Shown here one piece after another: positions 9,693-57,683 of a stretch of 64,000 nucleotides of DNA (the stretch's first letter is position 1; each line of letters opens with the position of its first letter). Made by a program: the position numbers and the translations under genes. This DNA is from Pelotomaculum sp. (GTDB lineage Bacteria > Bacillota > Desulfotomaculia > Desulfotomaculales > Pelotomaculaceae): the NCBI GenBank assembly GCA_018435055.1, contig JAHDOA010000022.1:1-64000 (forward strand), read 5' to 3'. Under the pieces are notes generated by a model that saw nothing but the letters and a program-made list of their open reading frames with translations, ran no database searches and was not told where the DNA came from.

Positions 9693-11105
9693 GTGAGAAT
9701 GGGCTATGAGCTGAATATAGCGCAAACGCAAAAATTAATTATGACTCCGGAATTGCGCCAGGCGATAACCGTGCTGCAGCTCTCCTCGCTTGAACTGACC
9801 AGATATATTGAGCAGCAGCTCCAGGAAAACCCTCTCCTGGAACTGTATGATGATGACGGGGAAAAAAACCTTGAGTTTTTGGACAAGGATAAGGGGGACG
9901 AGTCCGGCGATAAAAAGGAATATGATCTGGACTGGGAGCTGTATTTTCAAGACAGCAGCGATCTGGGCCTGGGCTACCGGGAACGGAAATGGGAACAGGC
10001 GGAATACAATTATGAAAATTTCATTACCCGCGCGCTCACGCTTGCCGAACACTTACTCTGCCAGCTTCATCTGAATCCCTGCGCTAACAGAGAGCGTTTG
10101 ATCGCTGAATATCTTATCGGCAATATAGATGAAAAGGGCTACCTCCGGGTGTCGCTGGAAGAAGTCGCGGGCCGGTTGAGGGTAAGTCAAATTGAGGCAG
10201 CCAGAGCCTTGCTGTTAATCCAGAGTTTTGACCCGCCCGGCGTCGGCGCCAGAAATTTGCAGGAATGTCTGATGATCCAGTATAGCGCTCTGGGCATTGA
10301 TAATGAGCTTGTCAAATGCTTAATTGAAAACTATCTGGAATTCCTGGCCCGCGGTAAAATTATTCGGATAGCCCATGAACTGGGCGTTACTGTGCAGGAA
10401 GTCCAGGGGGCGGCCGATATATTAAAGACATTTGATCCCAAGCCGGGCAGCAATTTTTCAGATCCCAGTAATAATCGCTACATTGTTCCCGATATCATTG
10501 TGAAAAAGGTGGACGGCGAATATATAATTCTAGTCAATGACATGGTTGCCCCGGGGATAAGGATCAATTCTACTTACCGTTCCGTGCTGGCCAAAGAAAA
10601 AAGCTGCGACTCGCAGACCCGCCGTTTTGTCGAGACCAAGCTGAATGCTGCGGTCTGGCTGATCAAAAGTATTGAGCAGAGAAGGCTGACCCTGTACAAG
10701 GTGGCGAACTGCCTGGTAGATATGCAACGGGATTTCTTGGACTACGGCATCAAGTACTTAAAGCCGCTCAACCTGAAGAACGTTGCGGAGGAGGTTGGAC
10801 TGCACGAGTCCACTATCAGCAGGGCCACCGCCAATAAATACATACAGACTCCCCAGGGTATTCTAGAGATGAGACACTTTTTTTGCACCGGCTTGAGCAA
10901 TGTCGCCGGAACAAGCATATCGTCCGGCTGCATTAAGGAGATGCTTCAAGAAATTATCGCCGGAGAGGACTGCCGGGTTCCTTTGAATGACCAGAAAATA
11001 TCTGATTTGCTAAGACAAAAAGGGATTAAAATTTCCAGGCGCACTGTAGCGAAGTATCGCAGTGAATTAAATATCCCGGCCATCGGGAAAAGGATCAGGT
11101 ACTAG
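9693..11105 (+). CDS. rpoN: RNA polymerase sigma-54 factor
   Basis: About 470 residues with all sigma-54 parts. Region I at the N-terminus is glutamine- and leucine-rich (QTQKLIMTPELRQAI). Region II is acidic (around DDDGEKN). The core-binding region follows, then the -24-binding helix-turn-helix, and the RpoN box is near the C-terminus (SRRTVAKYRSEL). Sigma-54 recognises -24/-12 promoters and needs an AAA+ activator; none is in this window. Starts at GTG 9693, ATG 9699 or TTG 9687 are all possible behind GAGGAG; 9693 gives reasonable spacing. It lies just before gap, where many Firmicutes have the repressor gene cggR, which is absent here. Confidence 0.93.
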   Translation: MRMGYELNIAQTQKLIMTPELRQAITVLQLSSLELTRYIEQQLQENPLLELYDDDGEKNLEFLDKDKGDESGDKKEYDLDWELYFQDSSDLGLGYRERKWEQAEYNYENFITRALTLAEHLLCQLHLNPCANRERLIAEYLIGNIDEKGYLRVSLEEVAGRLRVSQIEAARALLLIQSFDPPGVGARNLQECLMIQYSALGIDNELVKCLIENYLEFLARGKIIRIAHELGVTVQEVQGAADILKTFDPKPGSNFSDPSNNRYIVPDIIVKKVDGEYIILVNDMVAPGIRINSTYRSVLAKEKSCDSQTRRFVETKLNAAVWLIKSIEQRRLTLYKVANCLVDMQRDFLDYGIKYLKPLNLKNVAEEVGLHESTISRATANKYIQTPQGILEMRHFFCTGLSNVAGTSISSGCIKEMLQEIIAGEDCRVPLNDQKISDLLRQKGIKISRRTVAKYRSELNIPAIGKRIRY

Positions 11106-42385: not shown

Positions 42386-42997
42386 ATGATAACCTTGCAA
42401 AAGCTGCTGGAAATTGAGCAAAATGCCATGCCGGAGGCAGCCGCAGCCATTGAAGAAAAAGATATACGGCTAATTGCCGGCTGGTTGACGGAGAAAGACC
42501 GGGAAATAAGGAATAAGGCGCTGCTCTTATTGCAAAACCGCTCTATGAACCATAATGATGTCTACCCTTTTTGGCATGTATTTCAGGAGAAACTAAATAG
42601 CAATCAGCCCGAGCAGAGAAACATCGGCATTATGCTTATTGCCGCTAATACAAAATGGGACAGGGAAAATAAAATCGATGAGGCAATCGACGCCTACCTG
42701 CTGTGCCTGAACGACAAAAACCCTGTGATAATACGTCAATGTATCCAGTCTTTACACCAGATTCTCCCTTATAAAAAACACCTGTATCTAAATATTGCCG
42801 ATAGGCTAATTTCCGTCAACATTCCAGACATTGAAGAAACAATGAGGAAACCGGTGCTAATCGACATTTTAAAGGTGCTGATGGTAATAAGAAAAGGCTG
42901 GTATCCGGATGAGGTTGAACAATATATTAGTTTAGCGCTAGCCGGGGATTTACTTGATCAAAATGATAAAAAACAAATCAAATCAATGATGTGGTAG
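42386..42997 (+). CDS. HEAT-like helical repeat protein, unknown function
   Basis: 203 residues, almost all alpha-helical, with repeated helix pairs of the HEAT/ARM type (DIRLIAGWLTEKDREIRNKAL; later NDKNPVIIRQCIQSLHQIL). No catalytic motif, signal peptide or membrane segment. Probably a protein-binding scaffold. ATG behind GGAGGG. It lies 68 bases before the coiled-coil/ATPase/helicase operon on the same strand and may belong to it. Confidence 0.6.
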   Translation: MITLQKLLEIEQNAMPEAAAAIEEKDIRLIAGWLTEKDREIRNKALLLLQNRSMNHNDVYPFWHVFQEKLNSNQPEQRNIGIMLIAANTKWDRENKIDEAIDAYLLCLNDKNPVIIRQCIQSLHQILPYKKHLYLNIADRLISVNIPDIEETMRKPVLIDILKVLMVIRKGWYPDEVEQYISLALAGDLLDQNDKKQIKSMMW

Positions 42998-43065
42998 GAA
43001 GGACAATGTATAACCCTTGAAGAATGATAACGTATTCTGTCGGATTTCGGGGGTGTTTTTTATAT

Positions 43066-43860
43066 ATGTCGCAGAATCTTGATGAGTTTCTGGATCAAAC
43101 GCTGCAGGAAGATTTGAAAAGCCTTAACAATGCTCACCGCAGCATGGCAAATGTGGTCAGGCGGGTAAAAACAGCAGTTGACCAGGGCAACCTGGAAGCC
43201 CTGCAGCAGGCTCTGGCCCGCTACGGCGAATTGCTGGACAGGCAGCATGAAACACTGCGGAGCTTGCAGGAAGAGCTGCCTGCTTTCGACCTGCAGGTTT
43301 ATCTGCAAGAAGAGTTTCACCGGGGCTTTATGGAAGCCCTGGCAGCAGAGGATTTGGCCGTTGAAGCGGAATACCCGGTTTATGAAATCCTTCCCTTTAA
43401 GGTGCGGGCGCTGCCGGATAAAGAGATGGTCACCATCGACGACCGTGTCTGGCGCAACCTGCGTCCCGGCGTACTGGCCGCGCATTTGAAGAAAAGCATT
43501 GACCGCTTGAACGCGGCTTCTTTCGATACGCAGCGTTTTCTCCAGTCTCTGACGGCGGCATACGATACAGAAATGGCCAAACAGATCGTCAAGAACAAGA
43601 TTGATGTCAGCGAGCAGGAAGTCCTGCTGAAAGACATCTATAACATCCTTACTCCCTTACCGCGGCAAAAACGCGATTATCCTGCGCAGTTATTTGCCTT
43701 CGACCTGCACCGGGTGCTGAAAAGCGGCTGTTTACACGCGCCGGATGGCAGGAAGCTCTGGCTGGGCAATGTGCGTAACATCAGGCAGGCCATGGTGATC
43801 CTGGACGCCCAGGGGCAGGCGCAGCGTTTTGGTGTAATGAAATTTTATAAGGAGGGGTAG
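43066..43860 (+). CDS. Coiled-coil protein, first gene of an ATPase-helicase operon
   Basis: 264 residues from ATG 43066 (an upstream in-frame start at 43024 is less likely). The N-terminal 90 residues are strongly helical with heptad-like spacing (NLDEFLDQTLQEDLKSLNNA; QQALARYGELLDRQHETLRS). The middle and C-terminal parts (VWRNLRPGVLAAHLKKSIDR; FDLHRVLKSGCLHAPDGRKL) are not recognised. No catalytic residues are obvious. It is followed after 3 bases by a P-loop ATPase gene, so the products are likely made together and may form a complex. Function unknown. Confidence 0.7.
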   Translation: MSQNLDEFLDQTLQEDLKSLNNAHRSMANVVRRVKTAVDQGNLEALQQALARYGELLDRQHETLRSLQEELPAFDLQVYLQEEFHRGFMEALAAEDLAVEAEYPVYEILPFKVRALPDKEMVTIDDRVWRNLRPGVLAAHLKKSIDRLNAASFDTQRFLQSLTAAYDTEMAKQIVKNKIDVSEQEVLLKDIYNILTPLPRQKRDYPAQLFAFDLHRVLKSGCLHAPDGRKLWLGNVRNIRQAMVILDAQGQAQRFGVMKFYKEG

Positions 43861-43863
43861 GCT

Positions 43864-45105
43864 TTGGAGCCGGCATTCAGGGAATCAGCGCTGGAAATCC
43901 TGAGACGCGGGGAGCCGCCGCTGGATCCGCGGGCGCTAAAATCAATCACGCTGGGAGAGCAGGAGGGTATCTGGCATTTCTGGCGGGATTATTATTTGGA
44001 CGATTATATCGCTTGCGGTGGCAGCAAGGTGAAATTTCTCACCGGCAAGCCGGGTTCCGGCAAGACGCACGCCCTCCTGTTGCTGCTGGAAGAGGCCCGG
44101 CAGCGGGGCTATGTCACATTTTTTGCCAGCGCCCGCCACATGCGTCTGAATAAGTTTGACTCGCTGTACCAGGCCATATTGGAAACGGTGGATGTGGAAT
44201 CCCTGGTGTCGTCTTACTGCGCTAATGTTATCAGCCGCCTGGGTTATGATCCCGCACAGCTTGACCAGGGGCAGGATTTCTTTTCCTGGGCGCAGGCGCG
44301 GGGCCGGGCGCCGGACAGCTTGCGGCGCGAGATCCAGGAAAAGCTCGACGAGCTTTACCTGGATAGGAAATTAAACCATAATTTCGCGCTGGCGTTTACC
44401 CAGCTCTGCGCTCATCACCTGGGCTTGCGCCGGCTGGCGGATGGGCAGCAGGACACCCTGCGGGAATGGCTTAAAGGCAGGCCCTTGCCGGCCAGGTCTT
44501 TAAAACCCTTGAAAATTTTTACACGCGTCAATAAATATAATGCCAGGCACATGATGGCGTCTTTTCTTCATTTGCTGCGGCTCTGCGGCCGCCCGGGACT
44601 TTGCGCTATGGTGGACGACCTGAACGCATTGCTGGAGCGCGGACCCGAAGGGCGGGCGCTCTACGGCAGGGCCGCCCGCAACGAGGTCTACGAGAGCTTG
44701 CGGCAGCTGGTGGACGATTTCGCTGGTTTTGCAGGGGCATTTTTTGTCTTTGCCGGGCAGACGGAATTAATTCATGACGAAAAGGGCGGGTTTAAATCCT
44801 ACGAGGCCCTGTGGATGCGTATTCAGAATGAAGTAACGGGCATGCGTCCCAATAAGTTTGCCGATCTTTTCAATCAGGATCATCTGGTAAAAGAAATCTT
44901 CACCGGCGAAACCTGCCTGGAACTGCAGCAGAAGATAAACGACCTATTTGGCTGTAGCTCCGCTATCCGGCAGGAAGACTTCCACTGCCTGGTGGAAAGC
45001 GTCAGTATGCTTTCACCGGTGCGGCGGGTGGTAGAGGCTATTGTAAACCAATGTGACGCGGGAGGTGCGAATGATGGGGAATTTTGCAGCCAGGCAAATC
45101 ATTGA
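43864..45105 (+). CDS. P-loop ATPase, DUF2791/BrxD-like
   Basis: 413 residues. Walker A is GKPGSGKT (residues 61-68) in the context VKFLTGKPGSGKTHALLLL; Walker B is probably GLCAMVDDLNALLE (about residue 250). Further on, FVFAGQTELIHDEKG and FKSYEALWMRIQNE resemble the sensor region of DUF2791 ATPases such as BrxD of BREX phage-defence systems. TTG start with GGAGGGGTAGGCT upstream. Its end overlaps the next gene, a second ATPase of the same type, so the two may form a hetero-oligomer. Not a full BREX locus: no PglX, PglZ or BrxC gene is present. Confidence 0.75.
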   Translation: MEPAFRESALEILRRGEPPLDPRALKSITLGEQEGIWHFWRDYYLDDYIACGGSKVKFLTGKPGSGKTHALLLLLEEARQRGYVTFFASARHMRLNKFDSLYQAILETVDVESLVSSYCANVISRLGYDPAQLDQGQDFFSWAQARGRAPDSLRREIQEKLDELYLDRKLNHNFALAFTQLCAHHLGLRRLADGQQDTLREWLKGRPLPARSLKPLKIFTRVNKYNARHMMASFLHLLRLCGRPGLCAMVDDLNALLERGPEGRALYGRAARNEVYESLRQLVDDFAGFAGAFFVFAGQTELIHDEKGGFKSYEALWMRIQNEVTGMRPNKFADLFNQDHLVKEIFTGETCLELQQKINDLFGCSSAIRQEDFHCLVESVSMLSPVRRVVEAIVNQCDAGGANDGEFCSQANH

Positions 45106-46327
45106 ATATCTGCGTTCCGGTGTTTCCTCCCGCAGCTTGAGCGCTATTTTTTCATACGGCCGGGAGGCTGCCTGCGAGCGCGTGGAGCGTGAACTGCAGC
45201 GGGTGCGACAGGACGGCGGCGCCCATTCCCTGGTGATCAAGGGCAATTTTGGCAACGGCAAGACGCATTTTTTAAATATTATCGCCCACAAGGCGGAAGA
45301 GATGAATTTTGCCGTCAGTTTTGTGCCGCTCTCCAAAGAAACTCCCTTTGATAAAATGGACCGCCTGTACCGCAGGGCGGCGACCGGACTATGCCTGCCG
45401 GGTTGTTCCCAACCCGGCTTCGTCCCTATGCTGGAAACACTGCAGGCGGACAGTGAGCCGGCTGAAGAGTTGCTGAACTATGCCGCCCATAACCTGCACC
45501 CGAAACTTGAGGCGGTGTTGAAAAACTACCTGTACGGCAGCGGTGACGCATACAACCAGCATATCCTGGCCAGTGATCTGGCCGGTGACTTTATTCCCAA
45601 CGCGCAGCTCAAATCTATCCATCGCTTGAATTTTGGCAAAACACTGGCGTTAACACCTTTCAAAATCAAAGAAAACACTTTCGATTATTTTCGCTTTCTA
45701 TCCCGCTTAATCCGGGTTGCGGGCTATGCCGGGTGGGTAATTCTTCTCGACGAGTTTGAACAGTTGATGTATCTGGGCGTTATGGCCAGATCCAACGCCT
45801 ACCTGAACGCCGCCCGTTTTATGTCCCCGTCATTTGGCCTGGCGGGGACTTATACAGTATTTTCAGCCTCATCCAACCTCTGGTCGGAATTAATCTGGAA
45901 GCAAAAAAAGAGTGACTATGATATTGTGCCGCAGAAGCTGGCGGCCAAAGAGAGGCAATATGACATACCTACGGTGCGGGAAGTTTTCAGCAGTTTTTTA
46001 AAAGAGAGTATTTTTCTGGATACTATTTCTGCCTTCGATATCCGCCGGATGCTCCAGGCTGTGCGCGAGCAGCATGCCCTGGCCTACGATTGGCAACCCC
46101 CTGACGATATTAGCCAGGCTACGGCAGGCCTGTCTGCAGACAAGCCTCTGCGTACGGTGATCCGGACTGTGGTAGAGTACCTGGATCTGCAGTATCTTTA
46201 CGGCGGCAGCCAGCGGGTGACCGCAGAGATGCCGGAGGAACTTCCGCCGGGTGATGAGAGGGAAGGACAGGAGATAGTTGAAAATTATGAGGAAGAGTGT
46301 GTATTCCGGGGAGCTAACATTGAATAG
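45071..46327 (+). CDS. Second P-loop ATPase, DUF2791/BrxD-like
   Basis: 418 residues. Walker A is GNFGNGKT (residues 58-65) in LVIKGNFGNGKTHFLNII; Walker B is ILLDEFEQLMY (about residue 225), followed by a sensor-like FSASSNLWSEL. The N-terminal RQIIEYLRSGVSSRSL segment precedes the domain as in DUF2791 proteins. ATG 45071 is chosen for its GGGAGGTG site and overlaps the previous gene by 35 bases, so translation is coupled. Its C-terminal end is acidic (ELPPGDEREGQEIVENYEEE). Role unknown; an ATP-driven partner of the downstream helicase is a reasonable guess. Confidence 0.78.
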   Translation: MMGNFAARQIIEYLRSGVSSRSLSAIFSYGREAACERVERELQRVRQDGGAHSLVIKGNFGNGKTHFLNIIAHKAEEMNFAVSFVPLSKETPFDKMDRLYRRAATGLCLPGCSQPGFVPMLETLQADSEPAEELLNYAAHNLHPKLEAVLKNYLYGSGDAYNQHILASDLAGDFIPNAQLKSIHRLNFGKTLALTPFKIKENTFDYFRFLSRLIRVAGYAGWVILLDEFEQLMYLGVMARSNAYLNAARFMSPSFGLAGTYTVFSASSNLWSELIWKQKKSDYDIVPQKLAAKERQYDIPTVREVFSSFLKESIFLDTISAFDIRRMLQAVREQHALAYDWQPPDDISQATAGLSADKPLRTVIRTVVEYLDLQYLYGGSQRVTAEMPEELPPGDEREGQEIVENYEEECVFRGANIE

Positions 46328-46478
46328 GCCGCCAGGCGCCGGTTAACCTGCAAAATCATCTGGCGCTGTTCCGGACATCGGCGCCAATATTTGTAAAGCA
46401 ATAATATATGTTTGATTCCGCTGCAAAAAATGGGATTTTCTGATTATGTGCGATAGATTTAAAAGGGGGGCGCCTTTT

Positions 46479-49067
46479 TTGCATGCTGCTGTATTGATAG
46501 ACTCTTTTAACGAGGCGCTGGCGGAAGAAATCGCCTTCCTGCGCAATGAAGGAGGCCGGCCCTTGACGCTCCTGGACGGGGTTTTGGTTTACCGCGGCCA
46601 GGAGGGTTTTTTATATGCCTTCGATTTGGAGGTAGATGCTTTTCTACTCGATGGTACGCCGGTGCGGCTGCGCTGCGGTTTTCGCGAGACGGCAGGGGAG
46701 GTAGTGTCCATACGCGGCGTAGAGCTGACACTGGCGATGCATGAGGACATGGGTGAATTCCTGGAACGGGCGGAACTGTTCTGCGAACCCTGGTTTTTGC
46801 TGGCCGCCCTGCAGGAGCGCCTAAGGGAAATGCCGGGCAGGAATTTCCGTCTGGCCCTGGCCGTACTGGAAAAGGCCCCGGCGCGCCGGCGCGGCTTCGG
46901 TTACGTTTCACTTTCCGCTGCCGCCGGCGCCCAGGATGAAGCGCTGCAGTTGGCGGGTGAGAGGGCAATCACTTTTATCTGGGGACCGCCAGGCACCGGT
47001 AAGACGGAAACTCTGGCCAGAATTGCGCAGCTCTTATTTGAACAAGGTGGCCGGACGCTGATCCTGTCCCATGCCAATGTGGCTGTGGACGGCGCAGTGC
47101 TAAGGGCGGCGGCCCGGATCGGGGCGCCTGTTTCTTCCGGCAAGGTAGCGCGTTACGGCTGGGCCAGGCTGCCGGCGCTGCGGCAAAGCGGCTTGCTGGC
47201 CTCCAGCCTGGCAGCCGCTGACCAGCCGGAGATGTGGGAGAGGATCAGGGAGCTGGAGAATGAGCGCGGTGAACTGCTGGCCCGGTTGCGGGCAGGCGGC
47301 GCAAGGGACAAACGCCTGAGCGACGTTGAGCAGGCCTTGCGAAACCTGAGAACGGCTTTGAAAGAAGCCGCCGCGCGCGTTAGCCGCGCAGCGCGGGTGA
47401 TCGGCTGCACCCTGTCCACGGCGGCTATTGATCCGGTCATTTACCAGGACCACTACGATTTTGTGCTGCTGGATGAGGCCAGCATGGCTTATATCCCGCA
47501 GGTGGTTTTTGCCGCCTCTCTGGCAGGCCGGAAGCTGGTGGTTAGCGGCGATTTCCGCCAACTGGCGCCGGTAGCGCTGGCCGGGACGCCGCGAGTGGAG
47601 CGCTGGCTGAAGCGGGATATTTTCGAAGAAACCGGAATAACCGCCGCTTTTGAACAAGGCCTGGCGCCGGACATCGCGGTACTGCGTTTGCAGCGGCGGA
47701 TGCACCCGGCCATCGCCGGGTTTGTGAATGACTTTGTATACGGCGGCCTGCTTTACAATGCCCCGGAGACAGCCGGGCGCGCCAAGCTTGCCAATGCCGG
47801 GCCGTGCCCGGGCGCGGCGTTGACGCTGGTAGATTTAAGCGATCTGCCTGCATACTGCTACCGGCATGGTTCCTCCCGCTTCAATCCACTCTCTGCTTTT
47901 ATGGCTCTAATGCTGGCCAGGCAGCTCAGGTCGGACGGCCTTACTATCGGGCTACTTGCACCCTATGCTGCCCAGGCCAGGCTGCTAAACGCTTTGACTG
48001 CCGGACTTTTAGGCGCCGCCGGAGCGCGCGCCGGGGCTGCCGGTGTGACAGCCGCCACGGTCCATCGCTTTCAAGGGGCCGAACAGGACGCGGTAGTGCT
48101 GGATCTGGTTGACGCTTATCCGCAGCGCGCCGCCGGCGGTCTCCTTTCACGCCGGGATGGGAACATGGGGCAGCGGCTGCTTAATGTTGCCGTTACCAGG
48201 GCGCGGGGCAAGCTTTTTGTCCTGGCCTGCCGTGAATTTTTAGAGGACAGGCTGCCCGGTGACTCCGCCGTGTGCAGGCTTTTTCGTTTTATCCGGGAAA
48301 ACGGCCGGGTGATCCGGAGCAGGGAACTCTTTGCTGAGCTGCCTGCTAACCTGGCGGGCAAAGAAATGGAAATGACATGGTTTACCAGCCGCTGGCCGGC
48401 CCTGGAAGCATGGGAGGCCGATGTCCGCTCTGCCGCGTCCATCCAAATGGATTGGCCGGCTGCGTCCGGCCCGCCGGGGCCACCGGTGGCGCGTTCCCTG
48501 CGGCAGGCGCGAGCGGGCGGCGCCCGCCTTTCCCTGCGCGCCGGACGGCCTTTGCTCTTGCCGTCCGAGCTGCAGCCGTACGCTGTGCGCTATAGTGCGG
48601 CAGTGACGCCGCTAACTGCGGTGGGACGGGACATCGTCTGGTACGGTGGCCCCATGCCGGCGGACGGCAAGGTAGACCACTGCAGTGTCCGGGTGACGGG
48701 AGAAAGGGTCTGCCGCACGCTGCTCTACCTGTTGGAGATGGACCTGCGCCGGGAAATTGGCGGGAAGCGTTTCGCTGGTTTGCAGGCTTATGTAGAAAAC
48801 CGCCTTTCTTGCCCCCGCTGCGGCGCCCCGCTCACTGTCCGGTCAGGGACAAGCGGCCATTTCCTGGGCTGTACCGCTTATCCACGCTGTGATCTGCCGG
48901 CTGCCGGGTTCACGCTGGAAATCCTTGCCGCCTACCTGGCTGAGGCCGGGCTGACCTGTCCGGCCGGCCACCTTTTGCAGGCCGTTCCAACAAAACGCGG
49001 CCCTCTGGTGGTATGTTCCCACAACCCGGCCTGCCGCTGCGTCTACCAGGTGCGGGACCTGCTCTAG
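46479..49067 (+). CDS. SF1 (DNA2/NAM7-like) helicase with C-terminal topoisomerase-type zinc ribbon
   Basis: About 862 residues. Helicase motif I is GPPGTGKTETL (about 168), II is LLDEAS (about 331), III is SGDFRQLAP, V is VHRFQGAEQDAVVLD and VI is VAVTRARGKLFVLA. Residues 1-160 form an unrecognised N-terminal domain. A PLD-nuclease motif is not seen. Near residue 778 a zinc ribbon begins (CPRCGAPL ... GCTAYPRC), like the C-terminal fingers of topoisomerase I, followed by a second partial one (CPAGH ... CSHNPACRC). TTG 46479 has AAAAGGGGGG upstream; ATG 46446 is the alternative. Probably unwinds or translocates on DNA or RNA with the two ATPases. Confidence 0.8.
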   Translation: MHAAVLIDSFNEALAEEIAFLRNEGGRPLTLLDGVLVYRGQEGFLYAFDLEVDAFLLDGTPVRLRCGFRETAGEVVSIRGVELTLAMHEDMGEFLERAELFCEPWFLLAALQERLREMPGRNFRLALAVLEKAPARRRGFGYVSLSAAAGAQDEALQLAGERAITFIWGPPGTGKTETLARIAQLLFEQGGRTLILSHANVAVDGAVLRAAARIGAPVSSGKVARYGWARLPALRQSGLLASSLAAADQPEMWERIRELENERGELLARLRAGGARDKRLSDVEQALRNLRTALKEAAARVSRAARVIGCTLSTAAIDPVIYQDHYDFVLLDEASMAYIPQVVFAASLAGRKLVVSGDFRQLAPVALAGTPRVERWLKRDIFEETGITAAFEQGLAPDIAVLRLQRRMHPAIAGFVNDFVYGGLLYNAPETAGRAKLANAGPCPGAALTLVDLSDLPAYCYRHGSSRFNPLSAFMALMLARQLRSDGLTIGLLAPYAAQARLLNALTAGLLGAAGARAGAAGVTAATVHRFQGAEQDAVVLDLVDAYPQRAAGGLLSRRDGNMGQRLLNVAVTRARGKLFVLACREFLEDRLPGDSAVCRLFRFIRENGRVIRSRELFAELPANLAGKEMEMTWFTSRWPALEAWEADVRSAASIQMDWPAASGPPGPPVARSLRQARAGGARLSLRAGRPLLLPSELQPYAVRYSAAVTPLTAVGRDIVWYGGPMPADGKVDHCSVRVTGERVCRTLLYLLEMDLRREIGGKRFAGLQAYVENRLSCPRCGAPLTVRSGTSGHFLGCTAYPRCDLPAAGFTLEILAAYLAEAGLTCPAGHLLQAVPTKRGPLVVCSHNPACRCVYQVRDLL

Positions 49068-49098
49068 GTTAAACTTATAGAATTGCATTATGAAGTGA

Positions 49099-49127
49099 TT
49101 GACAGGGCTGATCGCAAGTGTTAAAAT
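49099..49127 (+). promoter_or_regulatory. Promoter of the trp T-box transcript
   Basis: TTGACA (49099-49104), a 17-base spacer and TAAAAT (49122-49127). It lies about 20 bases before the T-box leader. Confidence 0.75.
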
Positions 49128-49144
49128 CTGTTTATATCATTAAA

Positions 49145-49414
49145 CATACAAACCGATGAGCAAGACTAGTAGGAATGATTGGCTGTACCTAGAGAGCCGC
49201 CGCCTGGTGAGAATGCGGCTGCAGCGATTATTATGAATGGACTTGCGAGGGCAGCCCGAAATCGAAAGAAATTAGGCGCTGACGGGAACCCTGTCCGTTA
49301 TCAGCGGGGTGCATATGATAGTATGCAAAATGAGTGGGCGATTTATCGTCAATTTGGGTGGTACCGCAGGAGCTTAAAGCTTTTGCCCCTTTGTTTGGGG
49401 GCAAAAGCTTTTTT
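49145..49414 (+). ncRNA. T-box leader, tryptophan-specific (UGG specifier), upstream of trpBA
   Basis: Contains GATGAGCAAGACTAGTAGG, AGAGAGCCG, the specifier region TGAATGGAC with TGG at 49238-49240, GCGAGGGC, and the T-box sequence TGGGTGGTACCGC (49355-49367), then a strong terminator (AAAGCTTTTGCCCC ... GGGGGCAAAAGCTTTTTT, 49375-49414). Uncharged tRNA-Trp should bind and stop termination, so trp genes are on when tryptophan is short. Confidence 0.95.
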
Positions 49415-49458
49415 GGTTTTTCGGAAAGTTTTCTTTTCGAAAATTGTGGATAAGTGAC

Positions 49459-49626
49459 CTGCAGGCTTCGTTAGCGGCGATATTGATCCCTAATGCAAAG
49501 GGCGGATGACTCCGGGGATGAGCGAGGTCACTGTTTGAGGCGCGAAGCGCTGGGTTTGACCGGGCCGGGGAGAATGAGTCCGGACATTTTTAGGGGGCGA
49601 ACCCGGGCCGCGTTGTAAGCCTGCAG
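49459..49626 (+). other. Structured GC-rich insert between T-box and trpB
   Basis: Bounded by exact 10-base inverted repeats CTGCAGGCTT (49459) and AAGCCTGCAG (49617). Inside are further pairing segments (GAGGTCA with TGACC; GACCGGGCC with CCCGGGCC). It lies downstream of the T-box terminator and before the trpB ribosome site. No coding frame or known RNA motif was recognised. A similar segment is absent after the second T-box. Confidence 0.5.
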
Positions 49627-49679
49627 CTCGCCCGAAGGGTGAATTTGTTCTTTTTTTGAAGAAAAGGCAGGTGGTTTAC

Positions 49680-50864
49680 ATGTCAGACGGGTATTTCGGC
49701 ATCCACGGCGGACAGTATATTCCCGAAACGTTAATGAACGCTGTGCTTGAGCTTGAGCAGGCCTATGATCATTATAAGCGTGACCCCGGCTTTCAGGCGG
49801 AACTGACCGGGCTGCTGAATAATTACACCGGGCGTCCTTCGTTGCTCTACTTTGCCGAAAAGATGTCCAGGGATCTGAACGGGGCCAAAATCTATTTCAA
49901 ACGGGAGGACCTTAACCATACCGGTTCACACAAGATTAACAATGTGCTTGGGCAGGCGCTGCTGGCTAAACGCATGGGCAAAACCCGCGTGATCGCCGAG
50001 ACCGGCGCGGGGCAGCACGGCGTGGCTACAGCAACCGCCGCCGCCCTCATGGGGATGGCTTGCGAGATTTTCATGGGCAAGGAAGACATTGACCGGCAAA
50101 GGCTCAATGTTTACCGGATGGAACTGCTGGGCGCGCAGGTGCATGCGGTGACGAGCGGCACCCGGACACTTAAAGACGCAGTCAATGAAACCATGCGTGA
50201 ATGGACGCGTCGCGTGGCGGATACCCATTATGTGCTGGGCTCGGTAATGGGACCACACCCATTCCCCACGATGGTGCGTGATTTTCAAAGCGTGATTGGC
50301 CGCGAAGTAAGGCAGCAGATGCTGCAACAAGAAGGCCGGCTGCCGGATGCCTTGCTTGCCTGTGTGGGCGGCGGCAGCAACGCGATGGGCCTGTTCTATG
50401 ATTTTATCGCAGAGCCGGAGGTGCGTTTGATCGGCTGTGAGGCCGCCGGGCGTGGCATCGATACGGCTGAGACTGCCGCTACTATGGCCACCGGATCACC
50501 GGGCATTTTTCACGGCATGAAATCCTACTTCTGCCAGGACCGGTACGGCCAGATCGCTCCAGTGTATTCCATTTCAGCGGGGCTGGACTATCCGGGCGTA
50601 GGTCCCGAACATGCTCATCTCCGCGATACAGGCCGGGCGGAATATGTGCCTGTTACTGATGATCAGGCGGTAGAGGCCTTCGAATACCTCTCGCGGACGG
50701 AAGGAATTATTCCGGCCATCGAAAGCGCCCACGCGGTAGCCTGCGCCAGAAAGCTTGCTCCGGCAATGGGAAAAGACCAAATCCTGGTAGTCAATCTTTC
50801 CGGCCGGGGGGATAAAGATGTGGCGGCGATAGCGCGTTACAGGGGGGAACAAATCGATGAATAA
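49680..50864 (+). CDS. trpB: Tryptophan synthase beta chain
   Basis: A 394-residue PLP enzyme joining indole and serine to tryptophan. The PLP lysine is in [10 protein letters not shown] (about residue 82); [31 protein letters not shown], and [14 protein letters not shown] are typical of TrpB1, the form that works with TrpA. ATG 49680 behind GGCAGGTGG. It overlaps trpA by 8 bases. It is the first gene of the trp cluster, whereas trpB normally comes near the end of such operons. Confidence 0.96.
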
Positions 50865-51627
50865 ATTACAGCAGTCGTTCTCGAACGGCAAGGCATTTAT
50901 TCCATTTATTACAGCGGGCGACCCATCGCTGGAAGTTACTGAACAGCTGGCGCTGCAGATGGCGGCTGCCGGCGCGGATTTAATCGAGCTGGGAATCCCT
51001 TTTTCTGATCCAATTGCTGAAGGACCGGTGATTCAAGCGGCAAATAATCGTGCCCTCGCTGCCGGGACGACTACGGATAAAATATTTGCGATGGTGGGCA
51101 GGATCCGCAAGTCCAGCCGGACGCCGCTAGCCTTTATGACCTATATGAACCCTATCTTTACTTACGGCACTGAGAAGTTTATGCAGAGCTGTCAAAAGGT
51201 TGGCGTTGACGCAGTGATCGTGCCTGATGTGCCGTATGAAGAAAGAGCCGAACTGGCGCCTTACTGCGCTAAATACGGCGTTACCTTGATCTCCATGGTC
51301 GCTCCGACATCTAACCATCGCATTCGCATGATTGCCGGCGCCGCGCAGGGATTTATTTATTGTGTTTCATCGATGGGTGTCACCGGGGTGAGACAGGAGA
51401 TCGGCAGCGATGTTGAGCAAATGATTGAGCTGGTAAAAGAAGTCAAGGACATTCCCTGCGCTGTTGGCTTCGGTATTTCGACTCCTGAACAAGCGAAGGA
51501 AATAGCCCGGTTTGCTGATGGCGTAATTGTCGGCAGCGCTATAGTAAAAATTATAGCTCAACACGGTGCGAGCTGTGTGCCGTATGTTGTGAAATATGTA
51601 CAGGGCATGATAAATGCTGTTAAATAA
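50857..51627 (+). CDS. trpA: Tryptophan synthase alpha chain
   Basis: A 256-residue TIM barrel that splits indole-3-glycerol phosphate to indole. Catalytic Glu in [18 protein letters not shown], Asp in [13 protein letters not shown], and phosphate-binding segments VSSMGVTG and GFGISTPEQ. Starts within the end of trpB. A second T-box follows its stop after about 13 bases. Confidence 0.96.
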
Positions 51628-51639
51628 CTCAATTTAATA

Positions 51640-51909
51640 ATTACAATCAAACCAATGAGCAAGAGAAGTAGGTATTGAAAGGTAGTACAGAGAGCCGCTG
51701 TTGCTGGGAATGCGGTATGCCGGAAAATATTGAATGGACTTGCGAGGGCGGCTTGAAACCAGTAGGGAGTAGATACCGACGGGAACCCTGTCCGTTATCA
51801 GCGGGGCGCATATGATGGTATGCAGATGAGTGGGCGATTTATCGTCAATTTGGGGTGGCGCCGCAGAAGTATAAGCTTTTGTCCCTGAGCAGGGATAAAA
51901 GTTTTTTTA
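51640..51909 (+). ncRNA. Second T-box leader, tryptophan-specific (UGG specifier), upstream of trpE
   Basis: Has AATGAGCAAGAGAAGTAGG, AGAGAGCCG, specifier TGG at 51735-51737 in TGAATGGAC, T-box sequence GGGGTGGCGCCGC (51852-51864) and a terminator (AAGCTTTTGTCCC ... GGGATAAAAGTTTTTTT, 51873-51909). It matches the first T-box closely over long blocks (such as GACGGGAACCCTGTCCG), so the two derive from duplication. No clear promoter lies between trpA and it, so it may act as an internal checkpoint on read-through. Confidence 0.94.
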
Positions 51910-51952
51910 TTGCCATAAAGTGGCTATTCATTGGTGAAATGAGGTTGAACAA

Positions 51953-53413
51953 ATGATCAGACCCGATTCCGGGATTATCCAGACCCTGGCTAGCGAGTAC
52001 AGTATCATACCAATATGCCGGGAAATCTATGCCGATGTGATTACTCCGATTGCGTTGCTGAGAAGGTTTTCTGGGATAAGCAAGCGTTATTTCCTGCTGG
52101 AAAGTATTGAGGGGGGAGAAAAGTGGGGCCGTTATTCTTTCTTGGGATTCGATCCGGCGCTGCGGGTGTACGGTAAAGAACAAACCGTTACCATCGAGCA
52201 GAATGGTAAGGTCAGCCGGATTGAAACCGACCAGCCCTATGATGTATTGCGGGAAATTCAGCAGGCTTATAAATCTCCCCGGATTCCTGATATGCCGCCT
52301 TTTACCGGGGGATTTGCCGGCTATCTGGCCTATGCCATGATTGCTTACGCGGAGCCCAAATTATCCATTAAGCGCGGCGAATTCAATGATTTTGATCTGA
52401 TGCTGTTTGATAAGGTGATTGCTTATGATCATCTCAAGCAGAAAATCTGTATTATGGTCAACATGAAAACCGATCAGTTGATGGAAAATTACGGCAAGGC
52501 CGCCGCGGAATTAGAGAGAATTGCCGGCTTGATCAGCGATACCCGGCGGCTGCCCCCGGTTAAGGGCGAGGAAAATGTCAATTTTACCTGCAATGTCAGT
52601 AAAGAAGAATACTGCCATATGGTTGAGCGTACCAAAGAATACATTTTGGAGGGAGATATCTTTCAAGCTGTAATCTCAAGGCAGTTTACATCCCCATACC
52701 GGGGCAGCCTGCTGAATGCCTACCGGGTTTTGCGAACAACCAATCCTTCGCCCTACATGGTCTACATGAAGGTGGACGGAGAGGAACTAATGAGCGCGTC
52801 CCCGGAAACGCTGGTGCGTTTGCAAAACGGTCGGCTGACTACTTTCCCGGTGGCCGGTTCACGGCCGCGGGGAAAAACAGACACTGAGGATCAGCTCCTG
52901 GAAAAAGAGCTGTTGGCTGATGAAAAAGAACTGGCGGAACATAATATGCTGGTCGATCTCGGCCGGAACGACCTGGGTAAAATTTCGCAGTTTTCAACGG
53001 TAGAAGTGACAAATTACATGGCGATCCATCGTTATTCGACGATTATGCATATCTGTTCCCAGGTGGAAAGCGACATACTGCCCAATTGTGACGGATACAG
53101 CGCCCTTGCGGCGGTTCTGCCGGCGGGAACCCTGTCCGGCGCGCCCAAGACCAGGGCCTGCGAGATCATCAATGAGCTGGAAGCCGCACCGCGCGGCATA
53201 TATGGAGGCGCGCTGGGCTATCTGGATTTTACCGGAAATATGGATACCTGCATCGCTATTCGTATGGCCGTAAAGAAGGATAACAAGGTTTATGTACAGG
53301 CGGGGGGCGGTATTGTAGCCGATAGTATCCCTGAAAAGGAATATGAAGAATCCGGCCATAAAGCCCGGGCGGTAATTAACGCCATCCGCCATGCCGCGGA
53401 GGTTGATGACTGA
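51953..53413 (+). CDS. trpE: Anthranilate synthase component I
   Basis: A 486-residue chorismate-using enzyme. It has the N-terminal domain with LLESIEGGEKWGRYSFLG (tryptophan feedback-site region) and the C-terminal chorismate-binding domain with FQAVISRQF, PSPYMVYM, SASPETLVRL, PVAGSRPRGKT, LVDLGRNDLGK and AVLPAGTLSGAPK. ATG 51953 after GAGGTTGAACAA. It makes anthranilate with TrpG. trpG starts at the end of trpE. Confidence 0.96.
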   Translation: MIRPDSGIIQTLASEYSIIPICREIYADVITPIALLRRFSGISKRYFLLESIEGGEKWGRYSFLGFDPALRVYGKEQTVTIEQNGKVSRIETDQPYDVLREIQQAYKSPRIPDMPPFTGGFAGYLAYAMIAYAEPKLSIKRGEFNDFDLMLFDKVIAYDHLKQKICIMVNMKTDQLMENYGKAAAELERIAGLISDTRRLPPVKGEENVNFTCNVSKEEYCHMVERTKEYILEGDIFQAVISRQFTSPYRGSLLNAYRVLRTTNPSPYMVYMKVDGEELMSASPETLVRLQNGRLTTFPVAGSRPRGKTDTEDQLLEKELLADEKELAEHNMLVDLGRNDLGKISQFSTVEVTNYMAIHRYSTIMHICSQVESDILPNCDGYSALAAVLPAGTLSGAPKTRACEIINELEAAPRGIYGGALGYLDFTGNMDTCIAIRMAVKKDNKVYVQAGGGIVADSIPEKEYEESGHKARAVINAIRHAAEVDD

Positions 53414-53985
53414 TGATTCTGCTGATCGATAATTACGATAGTTTCTCCTATAATCTGGTACAGCTGGCCGGCAGCGTCAATCCGCATATTAGCGTAATCC
53501 GTAATGATGAAATAACAGCAGCGGGGATTGAAGCGCTGCTACCTTCTCACCTTATTCTTTCTCCCGGTTCCGGATACCCGCGGGATGCCGGCGTCTGCGA
53601 AGATGCGGTTCGCCGTTTGGCGGCAAAAGTTCCGATCCTGGGAGTGTGCCTGGGACATCAAGCTATCTGTACAGCCTGCGGAGCTGAAATAACTCATGCC
53701 AGACAGTTGATGCATGGCAAGAAGTGTACCATAACTATTGACAACACATGCCTGCTCTTCCGGGGCCTGCCCCGGCAGATTGAGGCCGCGCGCTATCATT
53801 CGCTGGCTGTCCGGAAAGAGACGCTTCCCGCTCAATTGCAGGTTATTGCTGAAGATGGAATGGGAGAAGTGATGGCAGTCAAGTACGAAAAACACCAGGT
53901 TTATGGAGTGCAGTTCCACCCGGAATCAATCATGACCCCCCTGGGGCAGGTAATTTTAGAAAATTTTTTAAAAATCGGGAGGTAA
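53413..53985 (+). CDS. trpG: Anthranilate synthase component II (glutamine amidotransferase)
   Basis: A 190-residue class I amidotransferase. LIDNYDSFSYNLVQ at the start, nucleophile cysteine in GVCLGHQAI, catalytic His-x-Glu in QFHPESI. It supplies ammonia to TrpE; in some Firmicutes the same subunit serves folate synthesis (PabA). ATG overlaps the trpE stop region. Confidence 0.95.
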   Translation: MILLIDNYDSFSYNLVQLAGSVNPHISVIRNDEITAAGIEALLPSHLILSPGSGYPRDAGVCEDAVRRLAAKVPILGVCLGHQAICTACGAEITHARQLMHGKKCTITIDNTCLLFRGLPRQIEAARYHSLAVRKETLPAQLQVIAEDGMGEVMAVKYEKHQVYGVQFHPESIMTPLGQVILENFLKIGR

Positions 53986-53989
53986 TAAG

Positions 53990-55012
53990 ATGATCAAGCA
54001 TGCTATTCAGACAGTCATCAACGGCGGGGATCTGGACTTTGAAACCGCTAAAGGAGCCATGAACGCCGTCATGGACGGCACTGCTACCCAGGCGCAAATA
54101 GGGGCGTTATTGACCGGGCTGAGAATGAAAGGCGAAACTGTGGAGGAAATCACTGCCTGCGCTGCGGTGATGCGTGAAAAAGGACTGAAAATTAACCCGG
54201 TGCGCCATGTTATAGATATTGTCGGAACCGGCGGTGACGGAACAAACACCTTCAACATTTCTACTACGTCCGCTTTTGTGATCGCGGCCGGCGGTGTTCC
54301 GGTAGCCAAGCACGGGAACCGCGGGGTATCGAGCAAAAGCGGTGCGGCCGATGTCCTGGAGTGTTTGGGGATTAACCTTAATCTGACGCCTGCACAAAGT
54401 GAAGAAGTATTAAAAAAGAGCAATATATGTTTTATGTTCGCCCAGCTTTATCACGGCTCAATGAAATTTGCCGCGCCGGTACGGCAGGAAATGGGCGTGC
54501 GTACCATCTTCAACATCTTGGGCCCCCTGGCCAACCCGGCGGGCGCGACTATGCAGTTAATGGGTGTATATGACCGTAAACTGGTGGAACCCCTGGCCCG
54601 GGTGCTTGCCAATCTGGGTGTGGTGAGGGGACTGGCGGTAAGCGGCGGCAGTGAGGGCATGGATGAAGTAACCCTGACCGGGCCAACTTATGTCTGTGAA
54701 ATTCGGTACGGGGAACTGACTTCTTATGAAATAACGCCGGAGCAATTCGGTTACAGCCGCTGTACGCTCGCAGATTTGGCCGGCGGCAGTCCCGCCGAAA
54801 ACGCGCAAATTACCATGGATATATTAACCGGCCGGGAAAGAGGGCCCAGGCGTGACGTGGTAGTCCTGAACGCGGCCATGGCTCTTTATTTGGGCATTGA
54901 TAATTGTTCAGCAGCGGACTGTATCAAATTGGCCCAGGAGCTGATCGACAGCGGCAAAGCCGCCGCTAAACTGGCGCAATTCCGCCGGCTGACCAAAGAG
55001 GTGGCGCAATGA
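53990..55012 (+). CDS. trpD: Anthranilate phosphoribosyltransferase
   Basis: A 340-residue enzyme transferring phosphoribose from PRPP to anthranilate. Conserved DIVGTGGDGTNTFNIST (PRPP and Mg site), AKHGNRGVSSKSGAADVLE, FAQLYHGSMKFAAPVR, RTIFNILGPLANPA and GSEGMDEVTL. ATG behind GGGAGGTAATAAG. It overlaps trpC by 4 bases. Confidence 0.96.
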   Translation: MIKHAIQTVINGGDLDFETAKGAMNAVMDGTATQAQIGALLTGLRMKGETVEEITACAAVMREKGLKINPVRHVIDIVGTGGDGTNTFNISTTSAFVIAAGGVPVAKHGNRGVSSKSGAADVLECLGINLNLTPAQSEEVLKKSNICFMFAQLYHGSMKFAAPVRQEMGVRTIFNILGPLANPAGATMQLMGVYDRKLVEPLARVLANLGVVRGLAVSGGSEGMDEVTLTGPTYVCEIRYGELTSYEITPEQFGYSRCTLADLAGGSPAENAQITMDILTGRERGPRRDVVVLNAAMALYLGIDNCSAADCIKLAQELIDSGKAAAKLAQFRRLTKEVAQ

Positions 55013-55803
55013 TCCTCGACGCCATTGCGGCTGCCGCCAGAAGCAGGACCGAGCGGAAGAAAGCAGAGAGGCCGCTGGAGAAAGTAAAAAAAGCAGCCCT
55101 GCGCATGAATGCCGCTACCGGTTTTCCTTTTGAAAAAGCCTTAAACCGGCCGGACATTAGTTTTATCTGTGAAGTTAAAAAAGCCTCCCCCTCTAAAGGA
55201 ATAATTGACGCTGATTTTCCTTATCTACAAATTGCCAGGGAATATGAGACGGCCGGCGCCGATGCCATATCCGTACTGACCGAACCGGAATACTTTCTGG
55301 GCAGCGACGATTATTTAGTGCAAATATCAGAGGTGGTTGCGTTGCCGGTGCTTCGTAAAGACTTCATCGTTGACCCTTACCAGATTTATGAAGCCAAAAT
55401 CCTGGGAGCGTCAGCTGTTCTGCTCATCTGCGCTCTTGTGGATACCCAAACAATCAGTGACTATATTGCAATATGCGATGAACTGGGCTTGTCCGTACTC
55501 GCAGAAGCGCATAATGAAAGGGAAATGGTATCGGCGCTGCGGGCTAAAGCCAGAGTTATCGGCGTTAACAACCGCAACCTGCGGGATTTTACGATTGACA
55601 TCGGCAACAGTATCCGGCTGCGGCATTTGGCGCCGGATGGCGTACTCTTTGTAGCGGAAAGCGGTATTAAAACCGCTGCCGATATTGAAATGTTGCGGCA
55701 GGCCAAAGTCAACGGGGCGCTGATCGGTGAAACGCTGATGCGCAGCCCGGATAAGAAAGCCATGCTCACAGGATTGCGAAACAGGGCCAATGAGCAAAAT
55801 TAA
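55009..55803 (+). CDS. trpC: Indole-3-glycerol phosphate synthase
   Basis: A 264-residue TIM barrel closing the indole ring. Catalytic residues lie in FICEVKKASPSKGII, SVLTEPEYFLGS, LPVLRKDFIVDPYQI, VIGVNNRNLRDFTID and VAESGIKT. ATG overlaps the trpD stop in an ATGA pattern. It is separate from trpF, not fused as in enteric bacteria. Confidence 0.96.
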   Translation: MILDAIAAAARSRTERKKAERPLEKVKKAALRMNAATGFPFEKALNRPDISFICEVKKASPSKGIIDADFPYLQIAREYETAGADAISVLTEPEYFLGSDDYLVQISEVVALPVLRKDFIVDPYQIYEAKILGASAVLLICALVDTQTISDYIAICDELGLSVLAEAHNEREMVSALRAKARVIGVNNRNLRDFTIDIGNSIRLRHLAPDGVLFVAESGIKTAADIEMLRQAKVNGALIGETLMRSPDKKAMLTGLRNRANEQN

Positions 55804-56404
55804 AATATGCGGTTTGACACGAAAAGCGGATATAGAAGCAGTGAACCGCCGGCTGCCGGACTGCGCCGGTTTCGTGTTTGCTCAAAGCCGCCGGCGGGTG
55901 ACACCGCAACAGGCCGCTGTTCTAAAAGCTGCTCTTGATCCCCGGATTAAGGCGGTCGGAGTTTTTGTCAATGAATCTCTTTCTTCCATTGTTAAACTAT
56001 GCGACAGCGGGGTAATAGATTTGGTACAGCTGCACGGGGATGAAAGCGCGGCATATATTAGAAAACTCAAGGAGCAAATTGATATTCCGCTAATCAAAAC
56101 AGTGCGGGTGCAGAGTGCGGAACAGGTGCGGCAGGCAGAGAAGTTATCCTGTGATTTGCTTTTGCTGGATACTTATCAAAAAGGACAATATGGGGGCATT
56201 GGGAAAACATTTGACTATGCGCTGATTCCTTTTCTGCAAAAACGATTCTTTCTGGCCGGCGGATTGGACAACAGCAATATAGCGCAGGCGATCAGAAAAT
56301 GTAATCCTTATGGTGTTGATATCAGCAGCGGTGTGGAAACCGATGGCATCAAGGATGAGGACAAGATCAGACAGATCATCCAAACAGTCAGAAGTTTAGG
56401 TTGA
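55790..56404 (+). CDS. trpF: Phosphoribosylanthranilate isomerase
   Basis: A 204-residue TIM barrel. Catalytic Cys in [14 protein letters not shown], the [14 protein letters not shown] segment, QLHGDES and the catalytic Asp region [20 protein letters not shown], with [12 protein letters not shown] and [10 protein letters not shown] at the end. Starts 14 bases inside trpC, so translation is coupled. Confidence 0.95.
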
Positions 56405-56426
56405 CAAACAAGGGAGGCTGGAGAAG

Positions 56427-57449
56427 ATGATATTTGTATTAAAGCCGGGTGTGCCGCAAGAAAAAATTGAGCAGTTTCAACAGAAGATAGAGTCGAACGG
56501 TTTCAAATCATTTCTCAGTACCGGCGCCGGGCATACTGTGGTCTGTTTGATTGGCAACACGGCTGCCATAGATTTAGATGCGGTGGTGCAAAACAATGAT
56601 ATTGTCGGATATGGCAAACGTGTGACTGAACCATATAAAGCAGTAAACCGCAATGTACATCCGGAGGATACCATGGTAAATGTAAGTACTGTAACCATTG
56701 GTGAGGGTATGTTTCAGGTTATAGCGGGACCCTGCTCGGTAGAAAGTGAAGAACAAATTATCGAGATTGCCGGGTCGGTGAAAGCAAGCGGGGCAACTAT
56801 GCTGAGAGGCGGCGCTTTTAAACCGCGCACTTCGCCTTATGCCTTCATGGGACTGCATGAGAATGGATTGCGTTTCTTGCTTAAGGCCAAAAAAGAGACC
56901 GGCCTGCCGGTTGTCACCGAGATAATGAACCAGACCCAGTTACCTTTATTCGAGGAAATTGATGTGATTCAGGTTGGCGCCAGAAATATGCAGAATTTCG
57001 ACTTGCTTAAAGAAGTGGGCAGGTTTAACAAACCGGTCCTGCTGAAAAGGGGGCTGGCCAATACTTTGGAAGAGCTGCTGATGAGCGCTGAGTATATTTT
57101 ATCCGAGGGAAACAGTCAGGTTATTCTGTGTGAGAGAGGGATCCGCACTTTTGAGACAGCTACTCGCAACACGCTGGATTTATCGGCGATTCCACTGCTC
57201 AAAAAGAAATGCCATCTGCCGGTTATTGTCGACCCCAGCCATGCCGCCGGCCTGCGGGCGCTGGTGCCGCCGCTGGCGCGGGCGGCGATAGCGGCAGGGG
57301 CGGATGGTTTAATGATTGAAACCCATAATAATCCGGCCAGGGCCCTGTGTGATGGCGCTCAGTCTCTTGATCTGGCGCAGTTCAGCGATTTAATGGCGGA
57401 TTTAAAACGTCGCATCGCATTTGAGGGAAAACAGGCCATAGTGGTTTAG
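56427..57449 (+). CDS. aroF: 3-deoxy-7-phosphoheptulonate (DAHP) synthase, type I-beta
   Basis: A 340-residue enzyme for the first step of aromatic synthesis, from PEP and erythrose-4-phosphate. The N-terminal ferredoxin-like regulatory domain (about 1-70) precedes a barrel with [73 protein letters not shown] and [11 protein letters not shown] behind GGGAGGCTGGAGAAG. As last gene of the trp cluster it adds chorismate supply under the same Trp T-box control. Confidence 0.94.
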
Positions 57450-57683
57450 GGGAATCGGAGGCGTCATACGCTTCGGGTTCTTGTCAATAATAGCAATGCC
57501 GGATAGATATAGGATTTTCTGTTTTATTAGCAGAAGGGAGTCGTATAAAATTGCTTGCCCATGTGAATGCGGTATTATTAATGTGGCATTATATTGGTGC
57601 AAGTTTGCTTCTGAATGCCCCGGGAATCACGGGGACGGGAACCACGGAGACGGACCAAATAATCCCTTCAGGGAGGTGGAGGC

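What the first reader, a model, noticed from the sequence alone, without database searches (positions are those of the whole stretch)
43066..49067. Uncharacterised operon: coiled-coil protein, two BrxD-like ATPases and an SF1 helicase with zinc ribbon
Four tightly spaced or overlapping genes encode a helical protein, two different P-loop ATPases with DUF2791/BrxD-like features, and a DNA2/NAM7-type helicase ending in topoisomerase-like zinc fingers. Such sets usually act on nucleic acid, and BrxD-type ATPases are known from BREX defence loci, but PglX, PglZ, BrxC and any methylase or nuclease are absent. It may be a minimal defence, repair or mobile-element control system. A HEAT-like protein gene directly upstream may be part of it.
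Basis: partly seen in the sequence, partly recalled or inferred. Interest (0 to 1): 0.7.

Follow-up and report, generated by a model that had tools for sequence, protein, structure and literature searches.

The report
BREX-like ATPase trio with swappable helicase
Three always-linked bacterial genes (a new helical protein and two BREX-like ATPases, one of them catalytically crippled) pair in different bacteria with different DNA motors and even sit inside CRISPR loci, which suggests an undescribed portable part of bacterial defence against foreign DNA.

Summary
The four genes are real, and related genomes show which belong together. Coiled-coil protein c1 and the two BrxD-like ATPases form a syntenic trio in about 70 loci from several Bacillota classes and Spirochaetota. 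The fourth gene varies. In the window's clade it is an SF1 helicase with zinc ribbons; in Clostridia and Spirochaetes, a PbeA-like SF2 helicase; elsewhere, SNF2 or BrxL. In a sister clade the trio lies in or beside type I CRISPR-cas genes: between cas3 and cas1 in two loci (I-D, I-B), next to cas5 or cas6 in two more. Each partner type maps to one trio clade. The first ATPase looks like a pseudo-enzyme (Walker-B glutamate missing in nearly all; P-loop lost in the CRISPR and SNF2 clades); the second keeps all catalytic residues checked in 60 of 60. The trio is patchy (about 4% of sampled genomes, 2 of 6 in the genus), and related genomes have sites without it. The upstream HEAT gene stays when the operon is absent, so it is not part. 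Best reading: an anti-foreign-DNA module in which an asymmetric ORC/Cdc6-like pair, scaffolded by c1, loads or controls an exchangeable motor. BREX and Shango membership tests fail. Defence activity and loading are inferred, not shown.

The parts
43066..43860 (+). c1: 264-aa protein, helical hairpin plus alpha/beta part; no known family
   Evidence: 35-member alignment; no Pfam, NCBIfam or PADLOC family; AF2 model pLDDT 92, pTM 0.79, no PDB or BFVD fold match
43864..45105 (+). BrxD-A: PF10923 ORC/Cdc6-like ATPase, P-loop present here (GKPGSGKTH) but Walker B is D-D, not D-E; probable pseudo-ATPase
   Evidence: Pfam 8.4e-29; motif counts
45074..46327 (+). BrxD-B: PF10923 ORC/Cdc6-like ATPase with complete Walker A (GNFGNGKTH) and Walker B (LLDE); ATG start preceded by GGGAGGTG (open frame from 45053)
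   Evidence: Pfam 1.9e-24; K, D, E in 60 of 60; AF2 model, AAA+ hits; start
46446..49067 (+). SF1 Upf1/Dna2-type helicase, 873 aa (start may be TTG 46479, by the homologues)
   Evidence: AAA_11, AAA_12, TIGR00376; motor motifs; nine full-length relatives, 65-81% identical
48807..48893 (+). topoisomerase-type zinc ribbon in the helicase
   Evidence: PF01396, 4.9e-11; ligands C789, C792, C809, C815 invariant
48957..49040 (+). second Cys/His cluster in the helicase (C838, H842, C857, C863, C865)
   Evidence: invariant in nine relatives
42386..42997 (+). HEAT-like gene: resident neighbour, NOT part of the system
   Evidence: kept in operon-free G320 and G318
49147..49393 (+). Trp-operon T-box leader: the downstream boundary, not part of the system
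   Evidence: RF00230, 106 bits

Best explanation
An accessory anti-foreign-DNA (most likely anti-phage) module. Shown: c1, BrxD-A and BrxD-B are a fixed, co-inherited trio; BrxD-B has a complete ATPase site while BrxD-A is degenerate; each trio clade has its own motor or effector (SF1-zinc ribbon here; SF2, SNF2 or BrxL elsewhere; in a sister clade the trio is in or beside type I CRISPR-cas genes). Inferred: BrxD-A and BrxD-B assemble as an asymmetric ORC/Cdc6-like hetero-oligomer that c1 scaffolds or aims; it recognises a feature of invading or replicating DNA and loads or licenses the dedicated motor. In the window that motor is the SF1 helicase, anchored by its zinc ribbons, which unwinds or strips the foreign DNA or its replication fork. 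No nuclease is needed in the operon if blocking replication is enough or if another nuclease finishes the job.
For: Trio synteny in about 70 loci; distance correlations 0.95-0.98; partner exchange, one clade per partner, 6 changes against a shuffled mean of 24.4; motif asymmetry; BrxL directly after BrxD-B in 8 of 8 loci with sequence there; trio between cas3 and cas1 in I-D and I-B loci and beside cas genes in two more; patchiness and sites without it; profile hits of the ATPases to DnaA and DnaI and fold hits to RdrA and ORC; BrxD as a possible helicase loader and BrxL as MCM-like in the literature (PMC12839542, PMC10164562).
Against: No functional test. The window's own flanks are ordinary metabolism genes, not a defence island. 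No nuclease in the operon. Some trio loci show no adjacent motor (L075, L079). No match on plasmid or phage records. Fold similarity of BrxD-B to ORC and RdrA is only moderate (TM about 0.35). The bulk PADLOC comparison is not a formal enrichment test.
Confidence: 0.5

Rival explanations
1. Accessory DNA repair or replication-restart system: the ATPase pair loads an SF1 or SF2 helicase at damaged or stalled host forks, with no role against invaders.
For: All motors are nucleic-acid helicases; the window and many Clostridia and Spirochaete loci have ordinary neighbours; profile hits to DnaA and DnaI.
Against: Patchy even within a genus; sites without the operon; BrxL and CRISPR-cas partners in related clades are defence genes.
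Confidence: 0.2
2. A part of BREX acting in trans: the trio works with PglZ, BrxC and a methylase encoded elsewhere in the genome.
For: The window's genome has five PglZ-domain proteins on other contigs, two of them strong; one trio copy lies beside BrxC (DUF6079) and a methylase (L074); BrxL variant.
Against: 9 of 18 trio genomes have no PglZ match, including G208, whose trio is in an operon with BrxL; the CRISPR and SF2 clades show no BREX gene next door.
Confidence: 0.1
3. Mobile-element control module: it manages replication or exclusion of a plasmid or integrative element that once carried it.
For: Presence and absence at otherwise conserved sites; origin-binding type ATPases.
Against: No match on plasmid or phage records; the one viral contig hit is a contig-edge fragment next to Mu-like head genes, possibly a chimera; no shared 8-mer at the edges of the extra segment.
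Confidence: 0.1
4. The trio is simply a passenger of CRISPR loci and defence islands, with an unrelated role such as sensing or regulation by a STAND-like ATPase.
For: Best fold hit of BrxD-B is RdrA, a defence ring ATPase; HTH regulator genes sit upstream in one clade; motor-less loci exist.
Against: A different DNA motor adjacent in each of several clades.
Confidence: 0.1

Closest known systems
Shango (SngABC)
   Same: A small helical partner, one PF10923-type ATPase and a helicase; anti-phage activity is shown for Shango (PMC10250203); both ATPases here match SngB weakly (5.7e-15, 7.8e-14)
   Different: c1 is not TerB; two ATPases, one degenerate; the helicase is SF1 here and other classes elsewhere
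Type 2 BREX BrxD-BrxHI dyad
   Same: BrxD-type ORC/Cdc6 ATPase linked to a helicase, proposed as helicase loader (PMC12839542)
   Different: No PglW, PglX, PglZ or BrxC at the locus; paired BrxD paralogues plus c1; other helicases; score 77.6 and 73.2 bits against an equivalog cut-off of 350
BrxL-containing BREX (type 1)
   Same: BrxL, an MCM-like DNA-binding AAA+ ring (PMC10164562), is the partner in one trio clade
   Different: In that clade BrxL occurs with the trio; G208 has no PglZ at all; the window's genome copy uses a helicase instead
PbeABCD phosphorothioation-dependent system
   Same: The SF2 helicase of the Clostridia and Spirochaete trio loci is closest to PbeA (to 2.6e-66)
   Different: c1 and the ATPases match no Pbe model; the similarity is to the helicase part only
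Mokosh helicase MkoA
   Same: SF1 motor region of the window helicase (3.9e-49, residues 172-608)
   Different: Only the motor aligns; the zinc ribbons and the trio are extra

Membership tests
Shango | TerB-like protein | tested here: not met
   no TerB match for c1 or for any of 35 homologues
Shango | SngB-type ATPase | tested here: inconclusive
   weak matches only (53 and 50 bits); no true SngB was scored for comparison
Shango | DEAD/DEAH helicase SngC | tested here: not met
   the window helicase is SF1 (AAA_11/AAA_12); no SngC among its PADLOC matches
BREX | PglZ, PglX-type methylase and BrxC at the locus | tested here: not met
   PglZ only on other contigs; the only PF10923 matches in the genome are these two genes; the five operon-region proteins match no methylase or PglZ model
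BREX | BrxD equivalog | tested here: not met
   NF033438 77.6 and 73.2 bits, cut-off 350
BrxC/BrxD ATPase family PF10923 | Pfam gathering score | tested here: met
   101.1 and 86.8 bits, cut-off 22.2
SF1 Upf1/Dna2-like helicases | AAA_11 plus AAA_12 with intact motor motifs | tested here: met
   GPPGTGKTE, DEAS, QRRMHP, HRFQGAEQD and VAVTRA present
Anti-phage defence systems in general | association with known defence genes | tested here: inconclusive
   clear in particular clades (CRISPR-cas, BrxL, BrxC plus methylase); not at the window; bulk PADLOC tallies (105 families from 105 neighbours, 27 from 79 control proteins at 1e-20) are not a per-protein test
Anti-phage defence systems in general | restriction of phage on expression | not testable with these tools
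   needs an experiment

The most novel reading that the evidence does not exclude
The trio is a portable loader cassette, an asymmetric pseudo/active ORC-Cdc6-like pair with a dedicated scaffold, that has been joined to unrelated DNA motors (SF1, SF2, SNF2, MCM-like BrxL) and to type I CRISPR-Cas, where it licenses or boosts Cas3. It would be one component shared by CRISPR and non-CRISPR immunity.
Probability: 0.3. Interest if true: 0.88.

Novelty: new variant of a known kind. Interest (0 to 1): 0.7.

Why it matters
BrxD-type ATPases are known from type 2 BREX and (as SngB) Shango, with no established job. Here nature supplies a comparison set: the same three proteins with several different partners, one ATPase losing its active site in separate clades, and orthologous loci with and without the module. 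That makes the idea 'ORC-like loader plus exchangeable motor' directly testable by swapping partners, and raises the question whether some type I CRISPR-Cas systems use a dedicated ATPase loader. Neither Pfam, NCBIfam nor PADLOC-DB 2.0 has a model of the first protein, so current annotation misses the system.

Tried and rejected
HEAT gene as a component: rejected, it stays at the site when the operon is absent. Cas3 as an ordinary trio helicase (first reading of L070/L071): revised, these are full CRISPR-cas loci, so Cas3 is shared with CRISPR. Fold identity of c1: no match in PDB or BFVD. Plasmid and phage records: no match. Viral contigs: one doubtful contig-edge hit. Direct repeats at the edges of the 14.6-kb extra segment: no shared 8-mer. 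Fourfold-site identity of operon against flanks with G319: a little higher in the operon (0.74-0.77 against 0.57-0.69), not decisive. Literature searches found no description of the trio in the held library.

Full report
WHAT IS THERE. Four same-strand genes lie at 43066-49067. c1 (43066-43860) is 264 aa; homologues support the start at 43066. BrxD-A (43864-45105) and BrxD-B (45074-46327, overlapping) both exceed the Pfam PF10923 cut-off but fall far below the BrxD equivalog cut-off. The helicase (46446-49067) has an SF1 Upf1/Dna2-type motor (AAA_11, AAA_12, TIGR00376), a topoisomerase-type zinc ribbon and a second Cys/His cluster; motor motifs and metal ligands are conserved in nine full-length sequences. 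A Trp T-box (49147-49393, RF00230) and the trp operon follow, which bounds the unit.

CONSERVED CORE. A search with BrxD-A in genome contigs gave 46 loci. Clustering of their ORFs shows c1, BrxD-A and BrxD-B side by side in the same order in about 40 of them, from Desulfotomaculia, Lachnospiraceae and other Clostridia, Erysipelotrichaceae and Spirochaetota; most exceptions lie at contig ends or where an antisense ORF was picked. Profiles of c1 find more genomes in the window's phylum, and nearly all keep the trio. Pairwise distances among the three proteins correlate at 0.95-0.98, as expected for a co-inherited unit; vertical descent alone would also give this.

THE FOURTH GENE IS EXCHANGED. 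In the window's clade it is the SF1-zinc ribbon helicase (11 loci including the window). In Clostridia and Spirochaetes it is a different, SF2 helicase, best matched by PbeA; of 29 loci it is divergent in 22, upstream on the same strand in 6 and downstream in 1. In two genomes of one family it is an SNF2 helicase preceded by a 190-aa protein. In two families it is BrxL, overlapping or directly following BrxD-B in all eight loci with sequence there, and in five of them followed by a RecQ-like helicase. In another clade the trio lies with type I CRISPR-cas genes: between cas3 and cas1 in an I-D locus with a 44-repeat array (L070) and in an I-B locus (L071); after the cas5-like gene of an I-A-like locus, with a cas1 remnant beyond it (L149); and next to a cas6-like gene at a contig end (L148, weak match). 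On a tree of the concatenated trio each partner type occupies one clade (6 changes, the minimum; shuffled mean 24.4), and the CRISPR clade is sister to the window's clade with 98% SH-aLRT support (a quick tree rooted only for drawing; the BrxD-A tree agrees at 88/85). Loci of the SF2 clade whose contig ends before the helicase were counted by clade, not by sight. A few trio loci have no visible motor (L075, L079), so it need not always be adjacent.

ASYMMETRIC ATPASES. BrxD-B keeps the Walker A Lys and the Walker B Asp-Glu in 60 of 60. BrxD-A lacks the Walker B Glu in all but one of the sequences aligned (mostly Asp or Asn instead) and has lost the P-loop entirely in all four CRISPR-clade members and both SNF2 members, two separate clades. 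That it does not hydrolyse ATP is an inference from motifs. One active and one degenerate subunit recalls ORC-type loaders; this is a parallel, not a test. The AlphaFold model of BrxD-B (pLDDT 84) finds RdrA, ORC and RuvBL AAA+ proteins at moderate similarity. The c1 model is confident (pLDDT 92, pTM 0.79) but matches no solved or viral fold.

ACCESSORY, NOT HOUSEKEEPING. The c1 family is in 15 of 299 and 19 of 398 sampled genomes of the phylum (overlapping samples; two of the 19 are a fragment and a marginal hit), 6 of 25 in the family and 2 of 6 in the genus, some of these genomes being incomplete. In G320, of the same genus, DNA synteny (81-82%) runs to the stop codon of the HEAT gene (window 42996) and resumes at window ~57650; G318 has the same neighbour after HEAT. 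So the window has about 14.6 kb more there: the operon plus a trp operon. Whether this was gained in one line or lost in the other is not settled. The HEAT gene is a resident neighbour. G319 has the operon at the same site. A second case: the I-B CRISPR locus of G223 is orthologous to that of G173 (88% DNA identity on the cas1 side) but has no trio between cas3 and cas1.

DEFENCE LINK. For: BrxL, CRISPR-cas, BrxC (DUF6079) plus an N6/N4 methylase (L074) and a Dam-type methylase (L131) beside the trio in other clades. A bulk PADLOC comparison points the same way but is not a formal enrichment test, because helicases of host repair also match that library. Against: the window's own neighbourhood is ordinary and nothing has been tested. 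BREX in trans is unlikely as a general rule: 9 of 18 trio genomes have no PglZ match, including the one whose trio is in an operon with BrxL, although the window's genome has five PglZ proteins elsewhere.

MECHANISM. Published work classes BrxD as an ORC/Cdc6 ATPase that may load BrxHI (PMC12839542) and shows that BrxL resembles MCM while other BREX ATPases resemble ORC subunits (PMC10164562). A trio plus exchangeable motor fits a loader: c1 scaffolds or aims, BrxD-B burns ATP, BrxD-A is structural, and the motor is the effector. Shown here: gene set, motif states, partner exchange, accessory distribution. Inferred: complex formation, DNA loading, anti-invader role.

STATUS. It is not Shango (no TerB protein, two ATPases, other helicase) and not BREX (no core genes at the locus, equivalog cut-off missed). 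It is filed as a new system of the 'ORC-like ATPase plus helicase' kind. No description of the trio was found in the held library, which lacks most subscription papers and all preprints; defence catalogues newer than PADLOC-DB 2.0 could not be checked.

Noticed in passing
window 42998-57645: The 14.6-kb segment absent from G320 at this site holds both the operon and a complete trp operon with a Trp T-box leader; G320 showed no close trpB.
   Followed up: partly
G000 contigs 23, 69, 12, 66, 60: The window's genome has five PglZ-domain proteins elsewhere, two with strong scores, so it may hold BREX or BREX-related loci.
   Followed up: no
L071:3651-4356: A nucleotidyltransferase-like/HEPN-like gene pair (judged by eye from sequence) lies between the trio and cas1 in the I-B CRISPR locus.
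   Followed up: no
L070:6892-7248 and 10512-10769; L149:10782-11147: A small membrane protein with similar sequence flanks the trio in two different CRISPR loci; no NCBIfam match.
   Followed up: partly
L078:3901-10509: One divergent trio is followed by a 438-aa protein, an HSP70-like protein (2.6e-48) and two further large proteins of unchecked family; an unexplored variant.
   Followed up: no
L115 (IMGVR_UViG_3300032007_002027): A viral contig begins with a BrxD-A gene cut by the contig end, followed by Mu-like phage head genes with no BrxD-B; a prophage insertion or an assembly chimera.
   Followed up: partly
L126-L129, upstream of the trio: In the BrxL clade an SNF2 helicase plus a 643-aa protein without Pfam match and a divergent 413-aa protein are also conserved near the trio.
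   Followed up: partly
L080:9961-10140 (G044) against L148 (G408): G044 holds only the last ~60 residues of c1, with no ATPases detected: a decayed remnant in a genus where another genome has the whole trio.
   Followed up: partly
L001 and L009 (G319): The same MAG holds two copies of c1 and BrxD-A on separate contigs; true duplication or mixed strains cannot be told apart.
   Followed up: no
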